A stretch of 64,000 bases of DNA, taken from positions 124,001 to 188,000 of the forward strand of contig JAHKLX010000003.1 of NCBI GenBank assembly GCA_020854835.1, read 5' to 3'. Positions 15,236-63,678 of this stretch are shown here, piece after piece. Each line of letters starts with the position of its first letter. Within the stretch, counting starts at the first letter, position 1. The position numbers were made by a program, and so were the translations under genes. The notes beneath the pieces are model-generated. The model was not told where the DNA came from. It ran no database searches and saw only the letters and a program-made list of their open reading frames with translations. This DNA is from Microcaldota archaeon. GTDB lineage: Archaea > Micrarchaeota > Micrarchaeia > Anstonellales > JAGGVH01.

Positions 15236-15383
15236 AAACAGTTAATATATGGAAATGTTTAAAATCATTTCTAGAATTCGGAAATGCTTATTTGGTGAAA
15301 TGGAACATTGTTAAAAATAACGGTAATTGATCCTATGCCAACCTTTTAAAATTTATCTCGTGCATATAAAGGAAGGTGATTTG

Positions 15384-15956
15384 ATGATTGAAATTGTTAT
15401 AATTGGGGGAGTTTGTATTGTTGTAGGGGGCGGATTGGCTGTTGTTGGTGCTGCGGTTTATATGTACAACACTATTGTTGTTCTTAGAGAAAGATGTGAA
15501 AATGCATGGGCACAGATTGATGTTCAATTGAAAAGAAGATTTGATTTGATACCCAATCTTGTTGAAACTGTTAAGGGATATGCAAAGCATGAAAAAACAA
15601 CATTTGAAAATGTTACCAAAGCAAGAACCTCTTTTATGAATGCTAAAGGTCCAAAAGAAATGGCTGAAGCAGAAAATATGTTATCTGGTGCTTTGAAATC
15701 TTTATTTGCTGTGGCAGAAAATTATCCAAATCTAAAAGCAAACGAAGGCTTTGTCAAGATGCAAGAGCAATTAGAAGAAACAGAAAACAAGATTTCTTAT
15801 GCAAGACAATTTTACAATGATATCACAACACAATACAATATTTTAATTCAAAAAATACCTTATGTTCTTATTGCCCCCTTAGTAGGTGCAAAACAAAGAG
15901 AACTTTTTGAGATAAAAAGCCAAGAAAAAGAAAATGTGCAAGTCAAATTCTAATTT
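15384..15956 (+). CDS. lemA: LemA family protein
   Basis: About 190 residues. A short N-terminal TM ([22 protein letters not shown]) is followed by the LemA signature [30 protein letters not shown] and a four-helix bundle ending with [10 protein letters not shown]. The ATG at 15384 is preceded by GGAAGGTGAT, a strong Shine-Dalgarno site, and by TTTTAAAATTTA as a likely TATA element. LemA proteins are membrane-anchored with unknown biochemistry and often occur with DUF2207/TPM proteins; a DUF2207 protein is encoded 9 kb away. The stop (TAA at about 15951-15953) lies at the end of the convergent neighbour, and a poly-T run follows. Confidence 0.9.
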
Positions 15957-20219: not shown

Positions 20220-20969
20220 TCACGGCAATATAGATGTTCCCACTTTTTTACCTTGGACTGCTTTGGCCAAGTTTTGAGGATTGGTTATAACAGAAGACAC
20301 TTTACTCTTCATTATCTCCATCAGTTTCCCATACATGCCTCCTGTTACATCTACTTTTGCAGAGCCGCCTAGATGAGATTTGATAGAAGAAAGATTGGAT
20401 TTTGTGATTTTTGGGAAAACTTTTCCATCAACATAAACTCCCTCAACATCAGATATAAAAACCATTTTGTCTGCTTTCATTTTCTTTGAAACTAGCTTCA
20501 TTATTTGATCTCCAGATAAAACTGAACCGTTTAGTTTTTTATCTAAAACCATATCTCCATAAAGGATAGGGAGATACCCTGCATCAAGAAAGTCTTTCAC
20601 AATTTTATCATTAAAAGAACATACTTTTTTGTTGTTTTGTTTAAACAAGAGGGTGGGAGTCAAAGAAACTGCAGAAACTCCGTGAAAGATCAATGCTTCA
20701 ACAATCATATTGGATAATTGGGAAACAGATAAATGAGTATCTGCAAAACCAAGTTTGTGTTTTTTTGTTTTTATTCCGTTGTTTATTTTATACTTCACAA
20801 CAGGTGCATGGCCAAAAGAACCTGCACCATGAACCAATATAATCTTGTATTTATTGTTTATTTTGGAAATTTCTCTTGCCAATTGAGAAATCATTTTCTT
20901 GTTTGCTTTTTTATAGTCCTTTTTCTCAGTTAAAACACTGCCCCCAAGTTTAATTACAATGGTTTTCAT
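20220..20969 (-). CDS. ipk: Isopentenyl phosphate kinase
   Basis: 249 residues from ATG 20969. It is an amino-acid-kinase-fold protein: Lys7 in IKLGGSVLT, HGAGSFGH at 47-54 with the catalytic His54 specific to isopentenyl phosphate kinases, and DVTGGM with a following Lys near the nucleotide site. It phosphorylates isopentenyl phosphate to isopentenyl diphosphate, the last step of the archaeal mevalonate route. A longer frame from 21026 exists but has no start signal. It is divergent from UbiX/UbiD/AcnX, which make its substrate. Confidence 0.95.
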   Translation of the reverse strand: MKTIVIKLGGSVLTEKKDYKKANKKMISQLAREISKINNKYKIILVHGAGSFGHAPVVKYKINNGIKTKKHKLGFADTHLSVSQLSNMIVEALIFHGVSAVSLTPTLLFKQNNKKVCSFNDKIVKDFLDAGYLPILYGDMVLDKKLNGSVLSGDQIMKLVSKKMKADKMVFISDVEGVYVDGKVFPKITKSNLSSIKSHLGGSAKVDVTGGMYGKLMEIMKSKVSSVITNPQNLAKAVQGKKVGTSILP

Positions 20970-21028
20970 AATAAAACATAGAAATGAGAAATTTAAAAAT
21001 ATGTTGTTTGGGTTTAAACGAACCATAA

Positions 21029-21040
21029 GTTATATAAATT
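21029..21040 (+). promoter_or_regulatory. TATA box of the UbiX-UbiD-AcnX operon
   Basis: GTTATATAAATT lies 21-32 bp before the UbiX ATG (21061) and there is no Shine-Dalgarno site between, so the operon message is probably leaderless. Confidence 0.5.
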
Positions 21041-21060
21041 AAATTAAAGAATAATTTAAT

Positions 21061-21594
21061 ATGAAAATTCTAGTTGTTATTTCAGGAGCATCAGGAGTAA
21101 TTTATGGAAAAAAACTAGTTGAAAAACTAAAGGAAAATAAAATTAATACAAAGGTGATTGTAACTGAAGCAGCAAAAAAAGTGGCGCATTATGAAAAGGT
21201 TGAATTGCCTGAAAGTGATTACGAAGAAAAAGACATTGCTGCGAGTCCTGCGTCCGGGACATCTGCACCAGATGTCATGATCGTTGCACCTTGCAGCGCT
21301 AAAACTTTGGGCCAAATAGCGAACGGAATCGGAGACACGTTGGTTACACGAGCTGCAGAAGTTGCTTTAAAAGAAAGAAAAAAATTAATTCTTGTAACAA
21401 GGGAAACTCCCTTATCTTATATAATGATAAAAAACATGGAAACTGTTACCTTGGCAGGAGGTATTATTTTACCTGCTTGCCCAGGCTTTTATCATAATCC
21501 GAAATCAATCGATGAACTTGTGGAGCATATAATAGTTAAAATTTTAAACTTGGTTAATGTTGAACATAAAATAGGAATTAAATGGGGTGAATAG
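21061..21594 (+). CDS. ubiX: Flavin prenyltransferase UbiX
   Basis: 177 residues. The FMN-binding N-terminus VVISGASGVIYG, the APCSAKTLGQIANGIGDTLV block and the TRETPLS motif are standard UbiX signatures. UbiX joins a dimethylallyl group to FMN to make prenylated FMN, the cofactor of UbiD-type decarboxylases. It is the first gene of the operon and directly precedes its client UbiD; the UbiD ATG lies one base after the UbiX stop. C-terminal residues after LNLVN are an unusual short tail. Confidence 0.95.
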   Translation: MKILVVISGASGVIYGKKLVEKLKENKINTKVIVTEAAKKVAHYEKVELPESDYEEKDIAASPASGTSAPDVMIVAPCSAKTLGQIANGIGDTLVTRAAEVALKERKKLILVTRETPLSYIMIKNMETVTLAGGIILPACPGFYHNPKSIDELVEHIIVKILNLVNVEHKIGIKWGE

Positions 21595-21595
21595 A

Positions 21596-22906
21596 ATGGT
21601 AAGTTTCAGAGATTTTGTTGAAAAACTAAAAAAAGAAACCAGAGTTATTGAATTGAAAAAACCAGTTGACAAAAAATTAGATATGGCGGGTGTTTTCAAA
21701 ACATTAGAAAATGAAAAAATACCTATCTTAGGAGAAGACAAAGATTCAGGAATGAAAGTTGTATGTAATGTTTACGGAGACAAAAAACTAGTTGCTGAAG
21801 CAATTGGGTGCGAACAAGGAGAATTGGTAAAAAAATTAACAAAAGCAATTGCAAATCCAAGTGAACCTACTGTTATTGAAAAAACAGAGGCTCCAGTTTT
21901 GGAAAAAGAAGAGGAAGTTGATTTAACTAAATTGCCAATACCTCTGCACACAGATAAAGATGGCGGACCTTATTTTTCATCAGCAGTTATATTTGTTTAT
22001 GATAAAGAACTTGGGAGAAACGCATCATTCCATAGGATGGCAGTTATTGATAAAGATAAATTAGTTATTAGAATGCTTCCGAGAAACTTAAATGCTTTCA
22101 GAGACAAGGCAGAAGAAAGAGGAGAAAATTTGAAGATTGCATTTGCTGTAGGAATACCAATAAATGCCTTGTTAGCAGCAGCAACATCTGTGGAATTGGG
22201 ATTTGATGAAATGACTATTGCAAACTCCCTTTCTCCAATAAAAATGGTAGAAATTGAAAATGGAATCAGAGTTCCTGCTGAGGCAGAATATGTTTATGTT
22301 GGAGAAATCACAAAAGAAGAACATGACGAAGGCCCTTTTGTTGATTTGACAGAAACCTTTGACATTATCAGAAAACAAAGAGTAATTAAAATCAACAAAA
22401 TTTATCATAGGAAAAATTCAATTCACCATGTTTTATTGCCTGGTGGTTTAGAGCATAAAGTTTTGATGGGCATGCCACGTGAACCAACAATTTGGAGAGA
22501 AGTTGAAAAAGCAGGCATCTCTGTTAAGGGTGTTAATGTAACACCAGGGGGATGTTCTTGGTTGCATGGTGTTGTTTCAATTGATAAAAAAACAGACGAA
22601 GATGGTAAAAACGCGATTGAAGCTGCCTTCCAAGGACATAAAAGTATGAAACACGTTGTGATTGTTGATGAAGATATTAACATCTTTGATCCGAATGAAG
22701 TTGAATGGGCAATTGCTACAAGATTCCAAGCAAACAGAGATGTAGTTATGAAAGAAGGCGCAAAAGGTTCATCTTTGGACCCATCATCCGACCCCGAAAC
22801 AAGAGCAACAACTAAAGTAGGTTTGGACTGTACGAAACCCTTAGTAGGAAAAGAAAACTTTGAAAAAGCAGAATACAAAAAAGTAAATGTTGAGGAGTAT
22901 AGGTGA
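21596..22906 (+). CDS. UbiD-family decarboxylase, probable anhydromevalonate phosphate decarboxylase
   Basis: 436 residues from ATG 21596 (GGGGTGAAT upstream). The UbiD fold is indicated by RNASFHRM, NALLAAATSVELG, LPGGLEHK, and VTPGGCSWLHGVVSI followed by VVIVDEDINIFDPNEVEWA with the catalytic acidic residues. Because it sits between UbiX and the two AcnX subunits, its likely substrate is trans-anhydromevalonate 5-phosphate, giving isopentenyl phosphate, as shown for the homologous archaeal pathway. Related UbiD enzymes act on other aromatic or unsaturated acids, so the specificity is from context. Confidence 0.9.
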   Translation: MVSFRDFVEKLKKETRVIELKKPVDKKLDMAGVFKTLENEKIPILGEDKDSGMKVVCNVYGDKKLVAEAIGCEQGELVKKLTKAIANPSEPTVIEKTEAPVLEKEEEVDLTKLPIPLHTDKDGGPYFSSAVIFVYDKELGRNASFHRMAVIDKDKLVIRMLPRNLNAFRDKAEERGENLKIAFAVGIPINALLAAATSVELGFDEMTIANSLSPIKMVEIENGIRVPAEAEYVYVGEITKEEHDEGPFVDLTETFDIIRKQRVIKINKIYHRKNSIHHVLLPGGLEHKVLMGMPREPTIWREVEKAGISVKGVNVTPGGCSWLHGVVSIDKKTDEDGKNAIEAAFQGHKSMKHVVIVDEDINIFDPNEVEWAIATRFQANRDVVMKEGAKGSSLDPSSDPETRATTKVGLDCTKPLVGKENFEKAEYKKVNVEEYR

Positions 22907-22910
22907 TTGA

Positions 22911-23516
22911 ATGAAATTAGGTTACCTATGTGTAACTGGAAGTGTTGGTTGGGGGTATTACATCGCAGATAGTTCAGATGTAGATTTAAGGGGAGTTTTT
23001 TATAGGACAAAAAAGGAAGAATTGTTAGACTGTAAAAGTGATCAAATAGAAAAAGAAATAGAACCTATAGAATCTGTATTTTGGTCATTTGACAAATTTT
23101 ATTCATTGCTTTTGAATTCTAACCCAACAGCGATAGAATGGTTGTTGTCACCTGTCCTATTTGAAGACGTACTATTCAAAAACTTAAGAAAACAAATCAG
23201 AGCCAAAAATTTTAACAAATACAGATTGGCCAAACACTATATCTCACTTTCTAGAGGCAACTATGAGAAATACACAAAAAAATTGACAGAGAAAAAAAGA
23301 ATCTATATAACGAGAGGTTTGATTAGTTGCCAGAGAGTTTTGGATGATGAATTGCCCCTAATGGATACAAGAGAAATGAAAATAATGACAAGAAAAAATA
23401 TCACGGAAGGAATCAAAAAATATGAAACTATGCTCAAAAAGGTTAAGTTTTCAGAATATGACTTAATAAAAGAAAAATATGATGATGTTTTAGCAAAATA
23501 TTATGAAGGTGATTAA
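22911..23516 (+). CDS. Predicted nucleotidyltransferase (COG3541/RlaP-like)
   Basis: 201 residues. The N-terminal VTGSVGWGYYIADSSDVDLRG as two adjoining blocks gives the pol-beta nucleotidyltransferase signature GS...D-x-D of the YcgL/RlaP-like family; the rest is helical. Proteins of this family are thought to transfer nucleotides to RNA or small molecules. It starts 4 bp after UbiD and ends one base before the AcnX large subunit ATG, so it is translated as part of the isoprenoid operon. Its role there is unknown. Confidence 0.75.
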   Translation: MKLGYLCVTGSVGWGYYIADSSDVDLRGVFYRTKKEELLDCKSDQIEKEIEPIESVFWSFDKFYSLLLNSNPTAIEWLLSPVLFEDVLFKNLRKQIRAKNFNKYRLAKHYISLSRGNYEKYTKKLTEKKRIYITRGLISCQRVLDDELPLMDTREMKIMTRKNITEGIKKYETMLKKVKFSEYDLIKEKYDDVLAKYYEGD

Positions 23517-24683
23517 ATGGAATTAACTGATGAAGAAATGAGAATGTTGAACGGCGAACAAGGAGAGGCTGTTCAACAAGCAATGGAAATTTTAGTTGCT
23601 TTGGGAAAAATATACAAAGCAGAAAAAATGATTCCTGTATCGAGCGTTCAGGTTGCTGGTGTGTCCTATAAAACAATGGGTGACGCAGGCATGGAATATG
23701 TTGAGGATTTGGCAAAACTTGGGGCAAAAGTTAGAGTTCCAACTTATATTAATCCTGCGGGCATGGATAGAAATAGATGGAAAGAATGTGGGGTGCCAGA
23801 GGATTTTGCCAAAAAACAAATTAGGATAATGGATGCTTATGAATCAATGGACATGAAACCAACCTATTCTTGTGCACCCTACCATATTGGAATACGTCCT
23901 TCAGTTGGGGAGCATATCGCATGGTCGGAATCAAATGCTGTGAGTTTTGCAAATTCAGTTCTAGGAGCAAGAACAAATAGGGAAGGAGGGCCTTCTGCAT
24001 TGGCTGCTGCAATTACTGGTAAAACCCCTTGCTATGGACTTCACCTTGAAGAAAATAGAATATCAACAACCTTAGTTAAAGTTCATACGGACATAAGTAC
24101 ACGATTTAAATTTGGTGCTTTAGGCGCTTTGGTTGGAAAAATGGTTAAGGGAAAAATACCTAGTTTTGAAGGTTTGAAAAATGCAAACGATGTAACAATG
24201 AAATATTTGGGTGCTGCTATGGCTGCTTCAGGCAGTGTTGCTTTGTATTATGTTAAGGGTGGAACCCCTGAGTTTAAACTTGCAGATCATTATGAAACAA
24301 TTGAAGTTGATGAAAAAATGATTGAAGATGCAATAAAAGAAATAAACACATCTGAAAATCCAGAACTTTTAACAATAGGATGTCCGCATGCCTCTTTAGA
24401 GGAAATTAAAGAAATTTCAGATATGATCCAACAAAGCAAAATAAAAAAGGTTTGGGTTTTTACTGCAAGAGAAATTTTAGAGCAGACAAAAGAAAAGGGA
24501 TATTTTAAAATTATTGAAGATGCAGGGGGCAAAGTTTTGGCTGACACTTGCATGGTTGTGAGTCCATTATATGAGATGGGTTATAGGTGTGTTGGTGTGA
24601 ATTCTGGAAAAGCTGCCAAATACTTGCCTTCATTCAATAAACAAAAAATAAAATATAACTCCATGGAGAACTTGATGAAATGA
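23517..24683 (+). CDS. Aconitase X large subunit (phosphomevalonate dehydratase large subunit)
   Basis: 388 residues, the AcnX catalytic domain as a stand-alone large subunit. Family blocks include SSVQVAGVSYKTMGDAG, YINPAGMD, YSCAPYHIG with Cys119, SNAVSFANSVLGARTNREGG in two parts, IGCPHASLEE and DTCMVVSP; the three Cys are positioned to hold the Fe-S cluster. It dehydrates mevalonate 5-phosphate to trans-anhydromevalonate 5-phosphate. The small subunit follows 9 bp downstream. ATG 23517 directly abuts the stop of the nucleotidyltransferase, with GGTGAT overlapping. Confidence 0.93.
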   Translation: MELTDEEMRMLNGEQGEAVQQAMEILVALGKIYKAEKMIPVSSVQVAGVSYKTMGDAGMEYVEDLAKLGAKVRVPTYINPAGMDRNRWKECGVPEDFAKKQIRIMDAYESMDMKPTYSCAPYHIGIRPSVGEHIAWSESNAVSFANSVLGARTNREGGPSALAAAITGKTPCYGLHLEENRISTTLVKVHTDISTRFKFGALGALVGKMVKGKIPSFEGLKNANDVTMKYLGAAMAASGSVALYYVKGGTPEFKLADHYETIEVDEKMIEDAIKEINTSENPELLTIGCPHASLEEIKEISDMIQQSKIKKVWVFTAREILEQTKEKGYFKIIEDAGGKVLADTCMVVSPLYEMGYRCVGVNSGKAAKYLPSFNKQKIKYNSMENLMK

Positions 24684-24692
24684 GGTGTTTTT

Positions 24693-25094
24693 ATGATTGT
24701 TAAAGGAAGAAGTATTGCAAAAGGAATTGGAAAAGGAAAAGTTTTGTTGACAAAAGATCCAATATCATTCTTGGGGGGTGTTGATCCAGAAACAGGAGAA
24801 ATAATCGATCAAGAAAATGAAGCATATGGGAAATTTATTTCGGGAAAAATACTTGTTTTTCCAAGAGGAAAAGGTTCAACTGTGGGATCATATGTTATGC
24901 TACAATTAAAGAAAAACGGTGTTGCGCCAGCAGGAATAATAAATTTGGATTCAGAAACAATTGTTGCTGTTGGGGCGATAATATCGGAAATACCTTTTGT
25001 CGACAAACTTGAAAGAGATCCCTATGAAATTCTGAAAGAGGATATGGAAATTCTTATAGATGGGAATCAAGGATTAATTAGTTTGGAAGCATAG
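24693..25094 (+). CDS. Aconitase X small subunit (phosphomevalonate dehydratase small subunit)
   Basis: 133 residues, the swivelling domain. Typical sequence: KGRSIAKGIGKGKVL, ISGKILVFPRGKGSTVGSYV with the substrate-contacting GKGST and a terminal EI-x-F-x-D-x-L segment. It pairs with the large subunit (9-bp gap, GAGGTG upstream) to form the phosphomevalonate dehydratase. It ends the isoprenoid operon, 21 bp from the end of the convergent DUF2207 gene. Confidence 0.93.
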   Translation: MIVKGRSIAKGIGKGKVLLTKDPISFLGGVDPETGEIIDQENEAYGKFISGKILVFPRGKGSTVGSYVMLQLKKNGVAPAGIINLDSETIVAVGAIISEIPFVDKLERDPYEILKEDMEILIDGNQGLISLEA

Positions 25095-25115: not shown

Positions 25116-26864
25116 TTATCTTGCTCCAAATCCTCCGCCTCCAAATCCTCCCCCCGATCCAGAAAATCCACCAGACCAACCACCACTAAATCCGCTAGAC
25201 GATGTTGAAGAGGGAGGGGAGTATCTGGTTGCAAAATATGTGCCCACATACATATAAGTAAATGTATTGAAATTGTTAGAGGTTTCAATAAATTCAGGAT
25301 TTATTTGTTTCATATGTTTTATTGTTTCTTTTGCAACGCCAAACGCAACAGCATAAGCAAGATAGTGCTCCCACAATACAACGCTCTGAGGAGGATGTTC
25401 TTTTAATAAAGAATAGTCGCTTAAATATTTTTTGAAGTTGTTCCATTTAAGATTGAGAACTCTGCCCTCAGAATTCCATCTTCCAAGCCAAATTCTTTTT
25501 TTAGTTAATATGAAGGTGGAAAGTAAACATGATCCAAGACTTAACAGAGTTAGAACAAGAAATATGTCTCCGATTTCATAGGGTATTATGAGAAAAACTA
25601 TTAAAAGAAGAAACAATGCCACTGCAAAAATAGTTGAAAATTTTTTGAATATTTGAAATCCCAAATCATCCATATATTGATTGATTTTCAACGAATTTTC
25701 AACCTTATTCATCCAAGATTGATACCAATAATAAAATTCACTTCTGTTTGCAATTGTGTTTTTGAATTTCTTTAGGTTTAAAGTCAATGGATCTTTGTCG
25801 TTTTTACAGTAGGATTTGAGTTTTTCATAAACATCATTTTCAAAATCTTTTAGTTTTTCTCCTTTTTCAGTGAATTTCAAAACAAATTCTTCTTTTTCTT
25901 TTTCAATTTTTATCCAATTCTTTGCCGCAAGAAAAACGATTGTTGCTTGCAGACTGTTTTCTTCAGCATATTTTCCCGTTATAAAAGATTGGACTTCAGC
26001 AGGCGTGTGTGCACTCGGAGGATCTCTTTCATATAATCCAAAATACCCCACCTTATCTTTAGATAATTCAGTACCGTACACAAAATAACAAACCAATCCT
26101 GCCAGCCAAGGGACAAAAAAGGAAATTGATATTAAAACGAGAAAAATTATTGACAAAATAAAAAAGATTCCCCCGCACGTTTCATCGTTTTTTTCTCCTT
26201 TGATTATTTCTTCTTTGTTGGATGTTCCTTCAACAAAAACGTTTTGTGGTGAATTTGAAAACCAATTTGGCGGCATTAGTAAGTTGATTTCAACAAAAGT
26301 TTCGCGAGGATAATTTTTTCCTGAAATTTTTATAGAATTCGTTTGATTTTTTACATCCAAATCGTGCGACCATGGATGAATAAAATAAGTTGTTTCCGAA
26401 AAAGAACCAGGCATATTAACAGAAATATCTAAATTTTTAATCTCTTGAGAAGTATCCCCCCACAATTTATAATAAAACTGGACAGTGTCAGGGTGTTTGA
26501 TTAAGGTTCTAACTTCATACTCATAAACCGCATCAACTATTCCACAACCTTTTTCTAATATCAAAATCAATTCAGGAGTTCCTGAAACTGATTGCAGATG
26601 ACTTTCTTGTTTGAATTGACAATTTTGATTTAAACACTCTCCTTTTGCATTATACAATTCTAACCCAATAGGAAAATCTTTATAAACCTCGGAAAAAGAT
26701 TCTCCAGGGGCACATTTTAGGTTATACCTTACTTGTTCTGTAACTTTGACCACACCATTATCCTGAATGGTGTAATCAATGTTTGCAGATTCTAGGATAA
26801 AACTCTTTGAATAAACCAAAAGAGTCATTAATATTAAAAATATACTTATTTTTTTAAAGTTCAT
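25116..26864 (-). CDS. DUF2207 membrane protein
   Basis: 582 residues. A signal peptide (ISIFLILMTLLVYSKSF) is followed by an extracellular beta domain beginning with YTIQDNGVVKVTEQVRY, the DUF2207 signature, then a TM hairpin at about 230-265 (two helices), a cytoplasmic winged-helix-like segment (AEVQSFITGKYAEENSLQATI), two further TM helices around 415-470, and a Gly/Ser/Phe-rich tail (GGFSGSGGGFGGGGFG). Proteins of this architecture often accompany LemA, which here lies 9 kb away. The function is unknown. Confidence 0.85.
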   Translation of the reverse strand: MNFKKISIFLILMTLLVYSKSFILESANIDYTIQDNGVVKVTEQVRYNLKCAPGESFSEVYKDFPIGLELYNAKGECLNQNCQFKQESHLQSVSGTPELILILEKGCGIVDAVYEYEVRTLIKHPDTVQFYYKLWGDTSQEIKNLDISVNMPGSFSETTYFIHPWSHDLDVKNQTNSIKISGKNYPRETFVEINLLMPPNWFSNSPQNVFVEGTSNKEEIIKGEKNDETCGGIFFILSIIFLVLISISFFVPWLAGLVCYFVYGTELSKDKVGYFGLYERDPPSAHTPAEVQSFITGKYAEENSLQATIVFLAAKNWIKIEKEKEEFVLKFTEKGEKLKDFENDVYEKLKSYCKNDKDPLTLNLKKFKNTIANRSEFYYWYQSWMNKVENSLKINQYMDDLGFQIFKKFSTIFAVALFLLLIVFLIIPYEIGDIFLVLTLLSLGSCLLSTFILTKKRIWLGRWNSEGRVLNLKWNNFKKYLSDYSLLKEHPPQSVVLWEHYLAYAVAFGVAKETIKHMKQINPEFIETSNNFNTFTYMYVGTYFATRYSPPSSTSSSGFSGGWSGGFSGSGGGFGGGGFGAR

Positions 26865-26917: not shown

Positions 26918-29371
26918 ATGGGTAGCGGATTTAAACAAACAAAAAAAGGATATGGGTTATCAATTGATAAAATAAGTGATGACCTGACAAAAGTGTTATG
27001 GAAACGATTTATGAGTATGTATAAAGAAAACAAAGAAGTATACGATCCTATATTTAACACCTATAGTAATGGTCGAGAAGGTATTGTGGTTTTATCATAT
27101 GATGAAAGAAAAAAAAGAAACTTTGCAGAATCAATGATAGAATATAATTTCTATAATTCGGTCGTGAGTATGAGTGAAAATATTAGGGTTTTAGATAAAA
27201 AAGGATTAAAACAATTTATCTCTCTTTGGTTGAATAATAACCTCCCTTTAAATAAAATAAATGATGATGAATTTGTTACTGGGAAAATAGATGAATTTTT
27301 GAAAAGAATGAGATATGATGAAAAAACAGATAAAATTCTGAGTAAAATTCCGAAAAGGATTGATAAAGCATATAGCAAAGCAGGGTATGAAAATCGATCA
27401 GGAGTCGGAGCAAATTATGATAGTATTGAAAGAAGACTCACTTTTGGAATTACACACGGCCCTTTTGGAATAAATTGGTCCAAAGGGGGAGGAACAAACA
27501 TTATGTATGGCCCTTTAACATTGAATGTGGTTACAAAAAATAATTTTGGTTTGAGTTTTGGAACTCAAATTCTAGGAATGCAAAGTTCAGTGTGGGGGAG
27601 ATATAATGAAGAAGTGTTTAAAGGTGCGGGGTACAGTATTGGAACTCCATTGATGAAAGCGCAAATGACATATGGGAATGGAGTTTTGAATTTTGATATT
27701 GGAACTATTTCTGATATAGGAAAAATGGGCCCTCAGATGGCTATGATGTTCATTAATAACTTTATTTCTACTCCTGAATTTTTAAGAAGACGGGATACGT
27801 GGTTTGGAAAAAATATAACAAATAGAATAGAAAATGCAGTATACTCCTCTTCCTTAGATATGATTGCACCATTATTTAGTTTTGGAGAATATTTATACAG
27901 AACAGGAGTGGCAGTTTCGAAAGTTTTTGGAATAAAACCACAATTTAAAGAAATGGGAGATATGATAGAAACCTTAAATAATATTGAAGAAACTTTGTCC
28001 ACTCCAAGAGCACTTTATGCAGTAACTAGAAACCCATCTATTCTGGCGCCTTCTTTAGTTAAAATGAGTGAATCTGAGAATGGAGGGTATGTATCAGGAT
28101 ATGGACGGGCCTTGATGGAAATAACTAATTTTAGTAAAGCAAGAAATAAACGATGGAAAGTTTTTGCTTGGCCCCCTTTCCAGAACGCAGAATTTTATGA
28201 GATGAAAAAATTTAGGAAACGTATTGAGAAGGCTATGGATTATAATAAAAATATTTGTCAAAAAATTGACAATGGAGAAAAAATAACCGAGAAAGAAACG
28301 AGAGAATTTAAGGCAAATATAACCTATTTATCCCATATTCCCTCTATAGCCTCAAACTTTATTGGTGCAATTCCTCATGAAATGGAAAACATACTAACTG
28401 CTTTGAGCGATTCAGTATCCTCTTTGAAAAACTATGTTAAGAAACATGGGCTGGGACACGATAAAACTTCTATTGATTTATATAATGACGGCTTGTTTTT
28501 CCAAAATGTAGGATATATGTTTGACGACAAGGATATGGTGCAAACTGGAACTCTGCTTTTGGTAGAATCACATTTGTCTTCGAGTCCAAACGAAAAATAT
28601 CATCCCGCTTCTGCACTTTTAGATATATACTCTGAAATGGCGTATAGTTGCAACTATGAGAATGAGTGTATTGAAAAAAATCTGGAGAAAACTAGTTTGA
28701 TAACCCCCAGTCTCTCATCAAAAAACCTACATCAAAAAATTAGAAATGTTATATTGAATGCGCCCCTAGACGCTTTTGAAATAATGAACAGAAATAGAAC
28801 AATGCAAAACGGAATTATGAGTAAAAAACCAGAAATGGAAGACAGGGCACATTATGAATATATTTATTTGAGTTCTTTGGATGAAATGGGATTGTTGGAT
28901 CTGGAAACAAAAGGAAATGTTGGAATTGTGAAGCAATATTATGAAATACGGATGAATTCTTTTGAAACTGAAAGAACTTATGATTATGGATCTTCGAAAA
29001 AAACCAGTAAAGGTTCTGGTGCTTTTAAGACATTTTCTTTGGCAATTTTTGGAAACCCAAATTTTGATGAAGTCTTGAGTAATTTGCATAGGAAAAGAAC
29101 TTTTAGAGAAGTGCTTGAATTGGTTGAAAATCAAGAGATTAGTGATAAAGATAAAATTGAACGTTTAATTTATTTGAAACAAGCAATAAATTATAATTTA
29201 CAGATATACTCAGATATACTTAAAAATATGGAAAATGTTGAACCCCAAAACAAAAAAGAAAGGCGCTTTTTGAATAAAATTTATAAAAGAATTGAGAAGG
29301 ATATGGAACAACTCCAAAAAAACAAAGACCAACTTGATAAAGAGATTAGTGAATTGCAGCATAAGGCATAA
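26918..29371 (+). CDS. Large uncharacterised protein with Gly-rich strand region and C-terminal coiled coil
   Basis: 817 residues, no signal peptide. The N-terminal 150 residues are helical. Residues about 165-275 are Gly-rich and alternate hydrophobic/polar (FGITHGPFGINWSKGGG, NNFGLSFGTQILG, AQMTYGNGVLNFDIG), as in beta-hairpin arrays. The middle is helical, and the last 70 residues form a charged coiled coil. Hydrophobic stretches flank 275-330. A TATA-like box (TTTTAAATA) about 25 bp upstream of ATG 26918 suggests a leaderless gene. I recognise no family. An exchanger gene follows 11 bp downstream. Confidence 0.75.
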   Translation: MGSGFKQTKKGYGLSIDKISDDLTKVLWKRFMSMYKENKEVYDPIFNTYSNGREGIVVLSYDERKKRNFAESMIEYNFYNSVVSMSENIRVLDKKGLKQFISLWLNNNLPLNKINDDEFVTGKIDEFLKRMRYDEKTDKILSKIPKRIDKAYSKAGYENRSGVGANYDSIERRLTFGITHGPFGINWSKGGGTNIMYGPLTLNVVTKNNFGLSFGTQILGMQSSVWGRYNEEVFKGAGYSIGTPLMKAQMTYGNGVLNFDIGTISDIGKMGPQMAMMFINNFISTPEFLRRRDTWFGKNITNRIENAVYSSSLDMIAPLFSFGEYLYRTGVAVSKVFGIKPQFKEMGDMIETLNNIEETLSTPRALYAVTRNPSILAPSLVKMSESENGGYVSGYGRALMEITNFSKARNKRWKVFAWPPFQNAEFYEMKKFRKRIEKAMDYNKNICQKIDNGEKITEKETREFKANITYLSHIPSIASNFIGAIPHEMENILTALSDSVSSLKNYVKKHGLGHDKTSIDLYNDGLFFQNVGYMFDDKDMVQTGTLLLVESHLSSSPNEKYHPASALLDIYSEMAYSCNYENECIEKNLEKTSLITPSLSSKNLHQKIRNVILNAPLDAFEIMNRNRTMQNGIMSKKPEMEDRAHYEYIYLSSLDEMGLLDLETKGNVGIVKQYYEIRMNSFETERTYDYGSSKKTSKGSGAFKTFSLAIFGNPNFDEVLSNLHRKRTFREVLELVENQEISDKDKIERLIYLKQAINYNLQIYSDILKNMENVEPQNKKERRFLNKIYKRIEKDMEQLQKNKDQLDKEISELQHKA

Positions 29372-63561: not shown

Positions 63562-63678
63562 TCCCGCGGGGGAGATTTGAGCTCCCAACCTATCGGTTTC
63601 AAAGCGACTTAGTGCACTAATCATCAGATTAGTGTAAACAAACTACAGCCGATCGCTCTACCATTGAGCTACCGCGGG
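63562..63678 (-). tRNA. tRNA-Tyr (anticodon GTA) with intron
   Basis: On the minus strand the acceptor CCCGCGG pairs with CCGCGGG, with discriminator A at 63562. The D arm is GCTC-AATGGTA-GAGC, the anticodon stem ATCGG/CCGAT, anticodon GTA (63646-63644), and the T arm GGGAG-CTCAAAT-CTCCC with C at position 54 instead of T. A 45-base intron (63598-63642) sits after position 37 and forms an 8-bp hairpin (CACTAATC-TGAT-GATTAGTG), the canonical archaeal place and structure for splicing endonuclease. No CCA encoded. Confidence 0.9.
63598..63642 (-). other. tRNA-Tyr intron
   Basis: 45 bases between anticodon-loop positions 37 and 38, containing an 8-bp hairpin and flanked by bases able to form a bulge-helix-bulge with the anticodon stem. 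Removal gives a 72-base tRNA. Confidence 0.82.

What the first reader, a model, noticed from the sequence alone, without database searches (positions are those of the whole stretch)
20220..25094. Diagnostic half of the archaeal (AcnX/UbiD-type) mevalonate pathway in one locus
Isopentenyl phosphate kinase diverges from UbiX, UbiD, and the AcnX large and small subunits. Together they turn mevalonate-5-phosphate into isopentenyl diphosphate through trans-anhydromevalonate phosphate. Co-location supports one functional unit; mevalonate kinase, HMG-CoA reductase and IPP isomerase are not here. If the organism is a DPANN archaeon, retention of lipid precursor synthesis would matter for its lifestyle.
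Basis: partly seen in the sequence, partly recalled or inferred. Interest (0 to 1): 0.68.

Follow-up and report, generated by a model that had tools for sequence, protein, structure and literature searches.

The report
Archaeal mevalonate-pathway operon in a micrarchaeon
A tiny-genome archaeon (Micrarchaeota) carries in one gene cluster the late steps of the standard archaeal route to membrane-lipid building blocks, and the rest of that route sits elsewhere in the same genome, so it can probably make its own lipid precursors; the pathway itself is already known and widespread.

Summary
At 20220-25094 the window carries isopentenyl phosphate kinase (minus strand), diverging from UbiX-UbiD-AcnX-large-AcnX-small. 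One gene was missed: an RlaP-type nucleotidyltransferase (22911-23516) sits between UbiD and AcnX-large.

AcnX has the three [4Fe-4S] cysteines and nearly all mevalonate-5-phosphate contacts of the solved Thermococcus enzyme, and lacks the third ligand of the hydroxyproline-dehydratase type. UbiD groups with AcnX-linked archaeal UbiDs and carries their Asp at the usual catalytic Glu.

The rest of the genome supplies thiolase, HMG-CoA synthase, HMG-CoA reductase, mevalonate kinase, type-2 IPP isomerase and GGGP synthase. In 59 genomes of the order, AcnX and UbiD occupy exactly the same 33.

The organism is a micrarchaeon. Archaea-type mevalonate pathways in DPANN are published, so this is a new member of a known kind. 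A by-product is more interesting: within this order some genomes have the archaea type only, some a classical PMK/DMD operon, and 16 have AcnX, UbiD, IPK and a DMD-like decarboxylase together.

The parts
20220..20966 (-). Isopentenyl phosphate kinase (IP + ATP -> IPP); divergent from the rest
   Evidence: NF040647 213.6 bits, cut-off 120; best PDB match 8u0k isopentenyl phosphate kinase, E=3e-40; conserved GAGSFGH motif with the IPK histidine seen in the alignment
21030..21038 (+). Candidate archaeal TATA box (TTATATAAA) for the UbiX operon
   Evidence: read by eye; inference only
21061..21594 (+). UbiX-type flavin prenyltransferase, makes prFMN for UbiD
   Evidence: TIGR00421 185.5 bits, cut-off 108.9; PDB matches are UbiX flavin prenyltransferases
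21587..22906 (+). [quoted passage not shown] GTG start at 21587 or ATG at 21596
   Evidence: TIGR00148 356 bits; groups with AcnX-linked UbiDs; EGPFVD motif with Asp in all AcnX-linked members in which the motif was found
22911..23516 (+). RlaP-type nucleotidyltransferase, lineage-specific insertion within the operon; probably not part of the pathway
   Evidence: PF10127 E=2.2e-24; absent from the AcnX loci of relatives; family found in only 3 of 59 genomes
23517..24683 (+). Phosphomevalonate dehydratase large subunit (AcnX type IIb); Fe-S ligands Cys119, Cys289, Cys345
   Evidence: Pfam AcnX 518.5 bits; 347 bits to TkAcnX-L 7cnr against 223 bits to type I; ligands and substrate contacts conserved
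24693..25094 (+). Phosphomevalonate dehydratase small (swivel) subunit
   Evidence: Pfam AcnX_swivel E=1.6e-33, PRK03955 182 bits; TkAcnX-S 7cnr_B E=1e-35

Best explanation
The locus encodes the late half of the archaea-type (modified) mevalonate pathway of a micrarchaeon. AcnX large and small subunits form a [4Fe-4S] dehydratase that converts mevalonate 5-phosphate to trans-anhydromevalonate 5-phosphate. UbiX makes prenylated FMN. The UbiD protein uses it to decarboxylate trans-anhydromevalonate 5-phosphate to isopentenyl phosphate. IPK phosphorylates that to IPP. The substrate comes from thiolase, HMG-CoA synthase, HMG-CoA reductase and mevalonate kinase encoded on other contigs. Type-2 IPP isomerase makes DMAPP, and GGGP synthase begins ether-lipid assembly. 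Shown here: gene identities, active-site residues, genome complement, co-occurrence and phylogeny. Inferred: the reactions, which follow from characterised Aeropyrum and Thermococcus homologues.
For: Family models. AcnX cysteine ligands equivalent to Tk Cys110/283/342 in all 31 relatives plus the window, with MVA5P contacts G48, V49, S50, N79, E129, S130, K361 and Y365 kept (residues from PMC8184944 and PMC10040528). HMGR, HMGS with adjacent thiolase, MVK overlapping IDI-2, GGGPS. Only one GHMP kinase and no TIGR01240 decarboxylase. AcnX and UbiD present in the same 33 of 59 genomes, IPK in 32 of these 33. UbiD clade containing only AcnX-linked members, apart from HmfF, AnInD and AroY. UbiD near AcnX in 68 of 80 loci from several archaeal phyla.
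Against: No activity data. The MAG is 87% complete with 5.6% contamination, so absence of PMK/DMD is not certain. MVK scores just under its curated cut-off (158.4 against 163) and HMGR under its equivalog cut-off (317 against 442), although both are clearly of those families. Two AcnX contacts differ from Thermococcus: N53 is Thr (as in 26 of 31 relatives) and S131 is Asn. The characterised Aeropyrum and Methanosarcina UbiDs were not available for the tree.
Confidence: 0.95

Rival explanations
1. [quoted passage not shown]
For: The only NCBIfam hit of AcnX-L is the hydroxyproline dehydratase model NF051439, and UbiD/UbiX are generic families.
Against: NF051439 scores 291 against a cut-off of 700. 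The protein is split into two subunits, has the type IIb cysteine set and MVA5P contacts, is 347 bits from TkAcnX against 223 from type I, lies next to IPK, and the rest of the mevalonate pathway is present.
Confidence: 0.02
2. The organism also has, or mainly uses, a PMK/DMD or PMD route that is missing from this incomplete MAG, so the cluster is one of two routes.
For: 16 relatives, mostly of another family, carry AcnX/UbiD/IPK plus a DMD-like decarboxylase; completeness of G000 is 87%.
Against: Neither G000 nor the same-genus G001 nor G002 has any TIGR01240 match, and G000 and G001 have only one GHMP kinase each.
Confidence: 0.05
3. The cluster comes from a contaminating archaeon binned into this over-sized (2.04 Mb) MAG.
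For: Contamination 5.6%; the genome is twice the size of its same-genus relative.
Against: AcnX-L is 76% identical to the same-genus genome G001 and forms one clade with G001 and G002 at full support. The window contig is 286 kb at 33% GC, the same as the contigs with HMGR, MVK and HMGS.
Confidence: 0.02

Closest known systems
Archaea-type (modified) mevalonate pathway of Aeropyrum pernix (PMDh = AcnX pair; AMPD = UbiD; IPK), Hayakawa et al. 2018
   Same: Same enzyme set, two-subunit AcnX with the same three cysteine ligands, UbiX/UbiD and IPK, with HMGS, HMGR, MVK and IDI in the genome
   Different: Host is a DPANN micrarchaeon; late genes form one divergent cluster with an extra nucleotidyltransferase gene inserted
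Thermococcus kodakarensis AcnX (TK1248 small subunit; PDB 7cnr/7cns)
   Same: Fe-S ligands and nearly all mevalonate-5-phosphate contacts conserved
   Different: N53 to Thr and S131 to Asn, both also seen in relatives
IPK-UbiX-UbiD-AcnX clusters of other Micrarchaeota (loci L035, L038, L045, L048, L056 and others)
   Same: Same gene order and divergent IPK
   Different: No nucleotidyltransferase; some have other lineage-specific genes between UbiD and AcnX

Membership tests
Archaea-type mevalonate pathway | Two-subunit AcnX type IIb with three specific cysteine ligands and no CxC third ligand | tested here: met
Archaea-type mevalonate pathway | UbiD-family AMPD linked to AcnX and not in another UbiD subfamily | tested here: met
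   characterised Aeropyrum and Methanosarcina sequences not available as references
Archaea-type mevalonate pathway | Isopentenyl phosphate kinase present | tested here: met
Archaea-type mevalonate pathway | Upstream HMGS, HMGR and MVK, and an IPP isomerase | tested here: met
Archaea-type mevalonate pathway | Enzymes convert MVA5P to tAHMP to IP | not testable with these tools
   needs assay
Classical (eukaryote-type) mevalonate pathway | PMK and DMD present | tested here: not met
   one GHMP kinase only, no TIGR01240 match; MAG 87% complete
Haloarchaea-type or Thermoplasma-type mevalonate pathway | PMD, or M3K plus MBD (GHMP-family decarboxylase homologues) | tested here: not met
   no second GHMP protein in the genome
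[quoted passage not shown]
   291 against 700 bits; two chains; TCMVV in place of the type I motif in the alignments

The most novel reading that the evidence does not exclude
Within this single micrarchaeal order the mevalonate pathway is caught changing type. Some lineages (including this one) have only the AcnX/UbiD/IPK route, others a classical PMK-DMD operon without IPK. A large group carries AcnX, UbiD, IPK and a DMD-like decarboxylase together, often side by side. In the dual genomes examined no PMK was found, so the decarboxylase may act on mevalonate 5-phosphate and give a second route to isopentenyl phosphate through the same IPK. That would be the intermediate predicted for the switch from the archaeal to the haloarchaeal or eukaryotic pathway.
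Probability: 0.3. Interest if true: 0.55.

Novelty: new member of a known kind. Interest (0 to 1): 0.22.

Why it matters
It supports self-sufficient isoprenoid and ether-lipid precursor synthesis in this DPANN lineage. The cultured relative Ca. Micrarchaeum harzensis, by contrast, is reported to lack HMG-CoA reductase and to depend on host lipids or precursors (PMC8975820). The comparison set also shows that the pathway type varies inside one order, which gives a compact natural series for testing how archaeal and eukaryotic-type mevalonate pathways replace each other. The finding itself confirms published generalisations: archaea-type is dominant, including in most DPANN (PMC11052028), and Micrarchaeota have mevalonate pathways with IPK or mvaD endings (PMC12892359).

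Tried and rejected
Hydroxyproline-dehydratase reading of AcnX: rejected on score, subunit structure and cysteine ligands. Classical, haloarchaeal or Thermoplasma pathway in this genome: searched with PF00288 and TIGR01240, nothing beyond MVK. Contamination origin: same-genus clade and matching GC argue against it. A functional role for the inserted nucleotidyltransferase in the pathway: not supported, because it is not conserved in any relative's cluster. The genes found at the same place in other genomes (L035, L038, L042, L053) have no Pfam match and look unrelated to it by eye. Whether the DMD-like protein of the dual genomes is a PMD: scores favour DMD (302 against 135 and 293 against 158 bits; PDB matches), while genome context (IPK present, no PMK found) favours PMD; left open.

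Full report
Observation. The plus-strand genes overlap or are separated by 0 to 9 nt. GGTG-type Shine-Dalgarno sequences precede NTase, AcnX-L and AcnX-S, and a TATA-like element precedes UbiX (by eye), so they probably form one operon diverging from IPK.

Active sites. PMC8184944 and PMC10040528 give the ligands and substrate contacts of the Thermococcus and Aeropyrum phosphomevalonate dehydratases. In the window protein and all 31 relatives tested, the three cysteine ligands (window Cys119, Cys289, Cys345) are kept. So are the contacts equivalent to Gly48, Val49, Ser50, Asn79, Glu129, Ser130, Lys361 and Tyr365. Asn53 is Thr in the window and in 26 of 31 relatives, and Ser131 is Asn in the window. 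The protein scores 347 bits to the Thermococcus chain and 223 to the type I hydroxyproline dehydratase. The third ligand of the type I CxC motif is absent in the alignment.

UbiD. The tree places the window UbiD with UbiDs that lie next to AcnX in Micrarchaeota, Thermoplasmatota, Methanobacteriota, Hadarchaeota and Aenigmatarchaeota, apart from HmfF, AnInD and AroY. All AcnX-linked sequences in which the motif was found (88, including the window and duplicates) have Asp where HmfF and AnInD have Glu in the EGPFxE motif. This looks like a marker of the AMPD group; it is an observation, not a tested specificity determinant.

Genome. The window is contig C5, 124001-188000, of a 2.04 Mb, 145-contig MAG (87% complete, 5.6% contamination). 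The same genome encodes archaeal HMGS with adjacent thiolase, HMGR, MVK overlapping type-2 IDI and GGGPS. MVK is the only GHMP-kinase match, and no diphosphomevalonate decarboxylase match was found. The chain from acetyl-CoA to IPP and DMAPP is therefore complete by the archaea-type route, and no second route was detected. The nearest named AcnX (76% identity, same genus) is from a Micrarchaeota MAG, so the organism is DPANN.

Co-occurrence. In 59 genomes of the order, full-length AcnX and UbiD are present in exactly the same 33 genomes, and IPK in 32 of these (tabulated). The Fisher value of 2.5e-17 ignores relatedness, so it overstates independence, but there is not one exception. In 68 of the 80 best named loci UbiD lies near AcnX, across several phyla.

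The inserted nucleotidyltransferase. It is absent from the AcnX clusters of relatives, and its family occurs in only 3 of 59 genomes. Other relatives have other, unrelated-looking genes at the same place. It is most likely a passenger.

Relation to the literature. PMC11052028 reports the archaea-type pathway as the dominant archaeal one, including in most DPANN, and reports classical and archaea-type genes together in Hodarchaeales. PMC12892359 describes mevalonate pathways across Micrarchaeota with mvaD or ipk endings. PMC8975820 describes a cultured micrarchaeon with an incomplete pathway. The finding is therefore a clean new member of a known kind.

Side finding. The 59 genomes split into 16 with AcnX/UbiD/IPK only (including this one), 18 with a DMD-like decarboxylase and no IPK, 5 with the decarboxylase and IPK, 16 with all four, one with AcnX, UbiD and the decarboxylase only, one with IPK only and 2 with none. 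The 18 without IPK include G015, which has a DMD-PMK-MVK operon. In G012, G027, G050, G052, G056 and, a few kb away, G033 the decarboxylase gene lies near the AcnX operon. In two dual genomes (G021, G030) the other GHMP proteins detected are MVK, a pantoate kinase or a sugar-phosphate-type kinase, and no PMK (sugar-kinase identity by eye). What the decarboxylase does there is open.

Noticed in passing
G012, G019, G021, G024, G027, G030, G033, G039, G044, G046, G050, G052, G054, G056, G058, G006 (loci L035-L066, L069-L076): Relatives carrying AcnX, UbiD, IPK and a DMD-like decarboxylase together; the decarboxylase gene lies next to or near the AcnX operon in several, and no PMK was found in G021 and G030.
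   Followed up: partly
window 22911-23516: RlaP-type nucleotidyltransferase inserted between UbiD and AcnX-large, with its own Shine-Dalgarno; family in only 3 of 59 genomes of the order.
   Followed up: yes
AcnX-linked UbiD proteins (window 21587-22906 and relatives): Asp replaces the usual catalytic Glu in the EGPFxE motif in every AcnX-linked UbiD in which the motif was found; possible signature of the anhydromevalonate phosphate decarboxylases.
   Followed up: partly
G001 (L034, L203): In the same-genus genome AcnX, UbiD and IPK lie on three different contigs, and a gene resembling an IS transposase (by eye) lies upstream of AcnX; the cluster appears broken up.
   Followed up: partly
whole genome G000: At 2.04 Mb it is larger than the Micrarchaeota genome sizes given in PMC12892359 (up to 1.59 Mb) and twice its same-genus relative; may be partly contamination (5.6%) or strain mixing.
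   Followed up: no
window 15327-15953 and 25116-26864: LemA-family protein and a DUF2207 membrane protein flank the region at a distance.
   Followed up: no
window 26918-29371: 817-aa protein with no Pfam match, shortly downstream of the cluster.
   Followed up: no
window 63562-63678: tRNA gene match of 117 bases, probably intron-containing.
   Followed up: no
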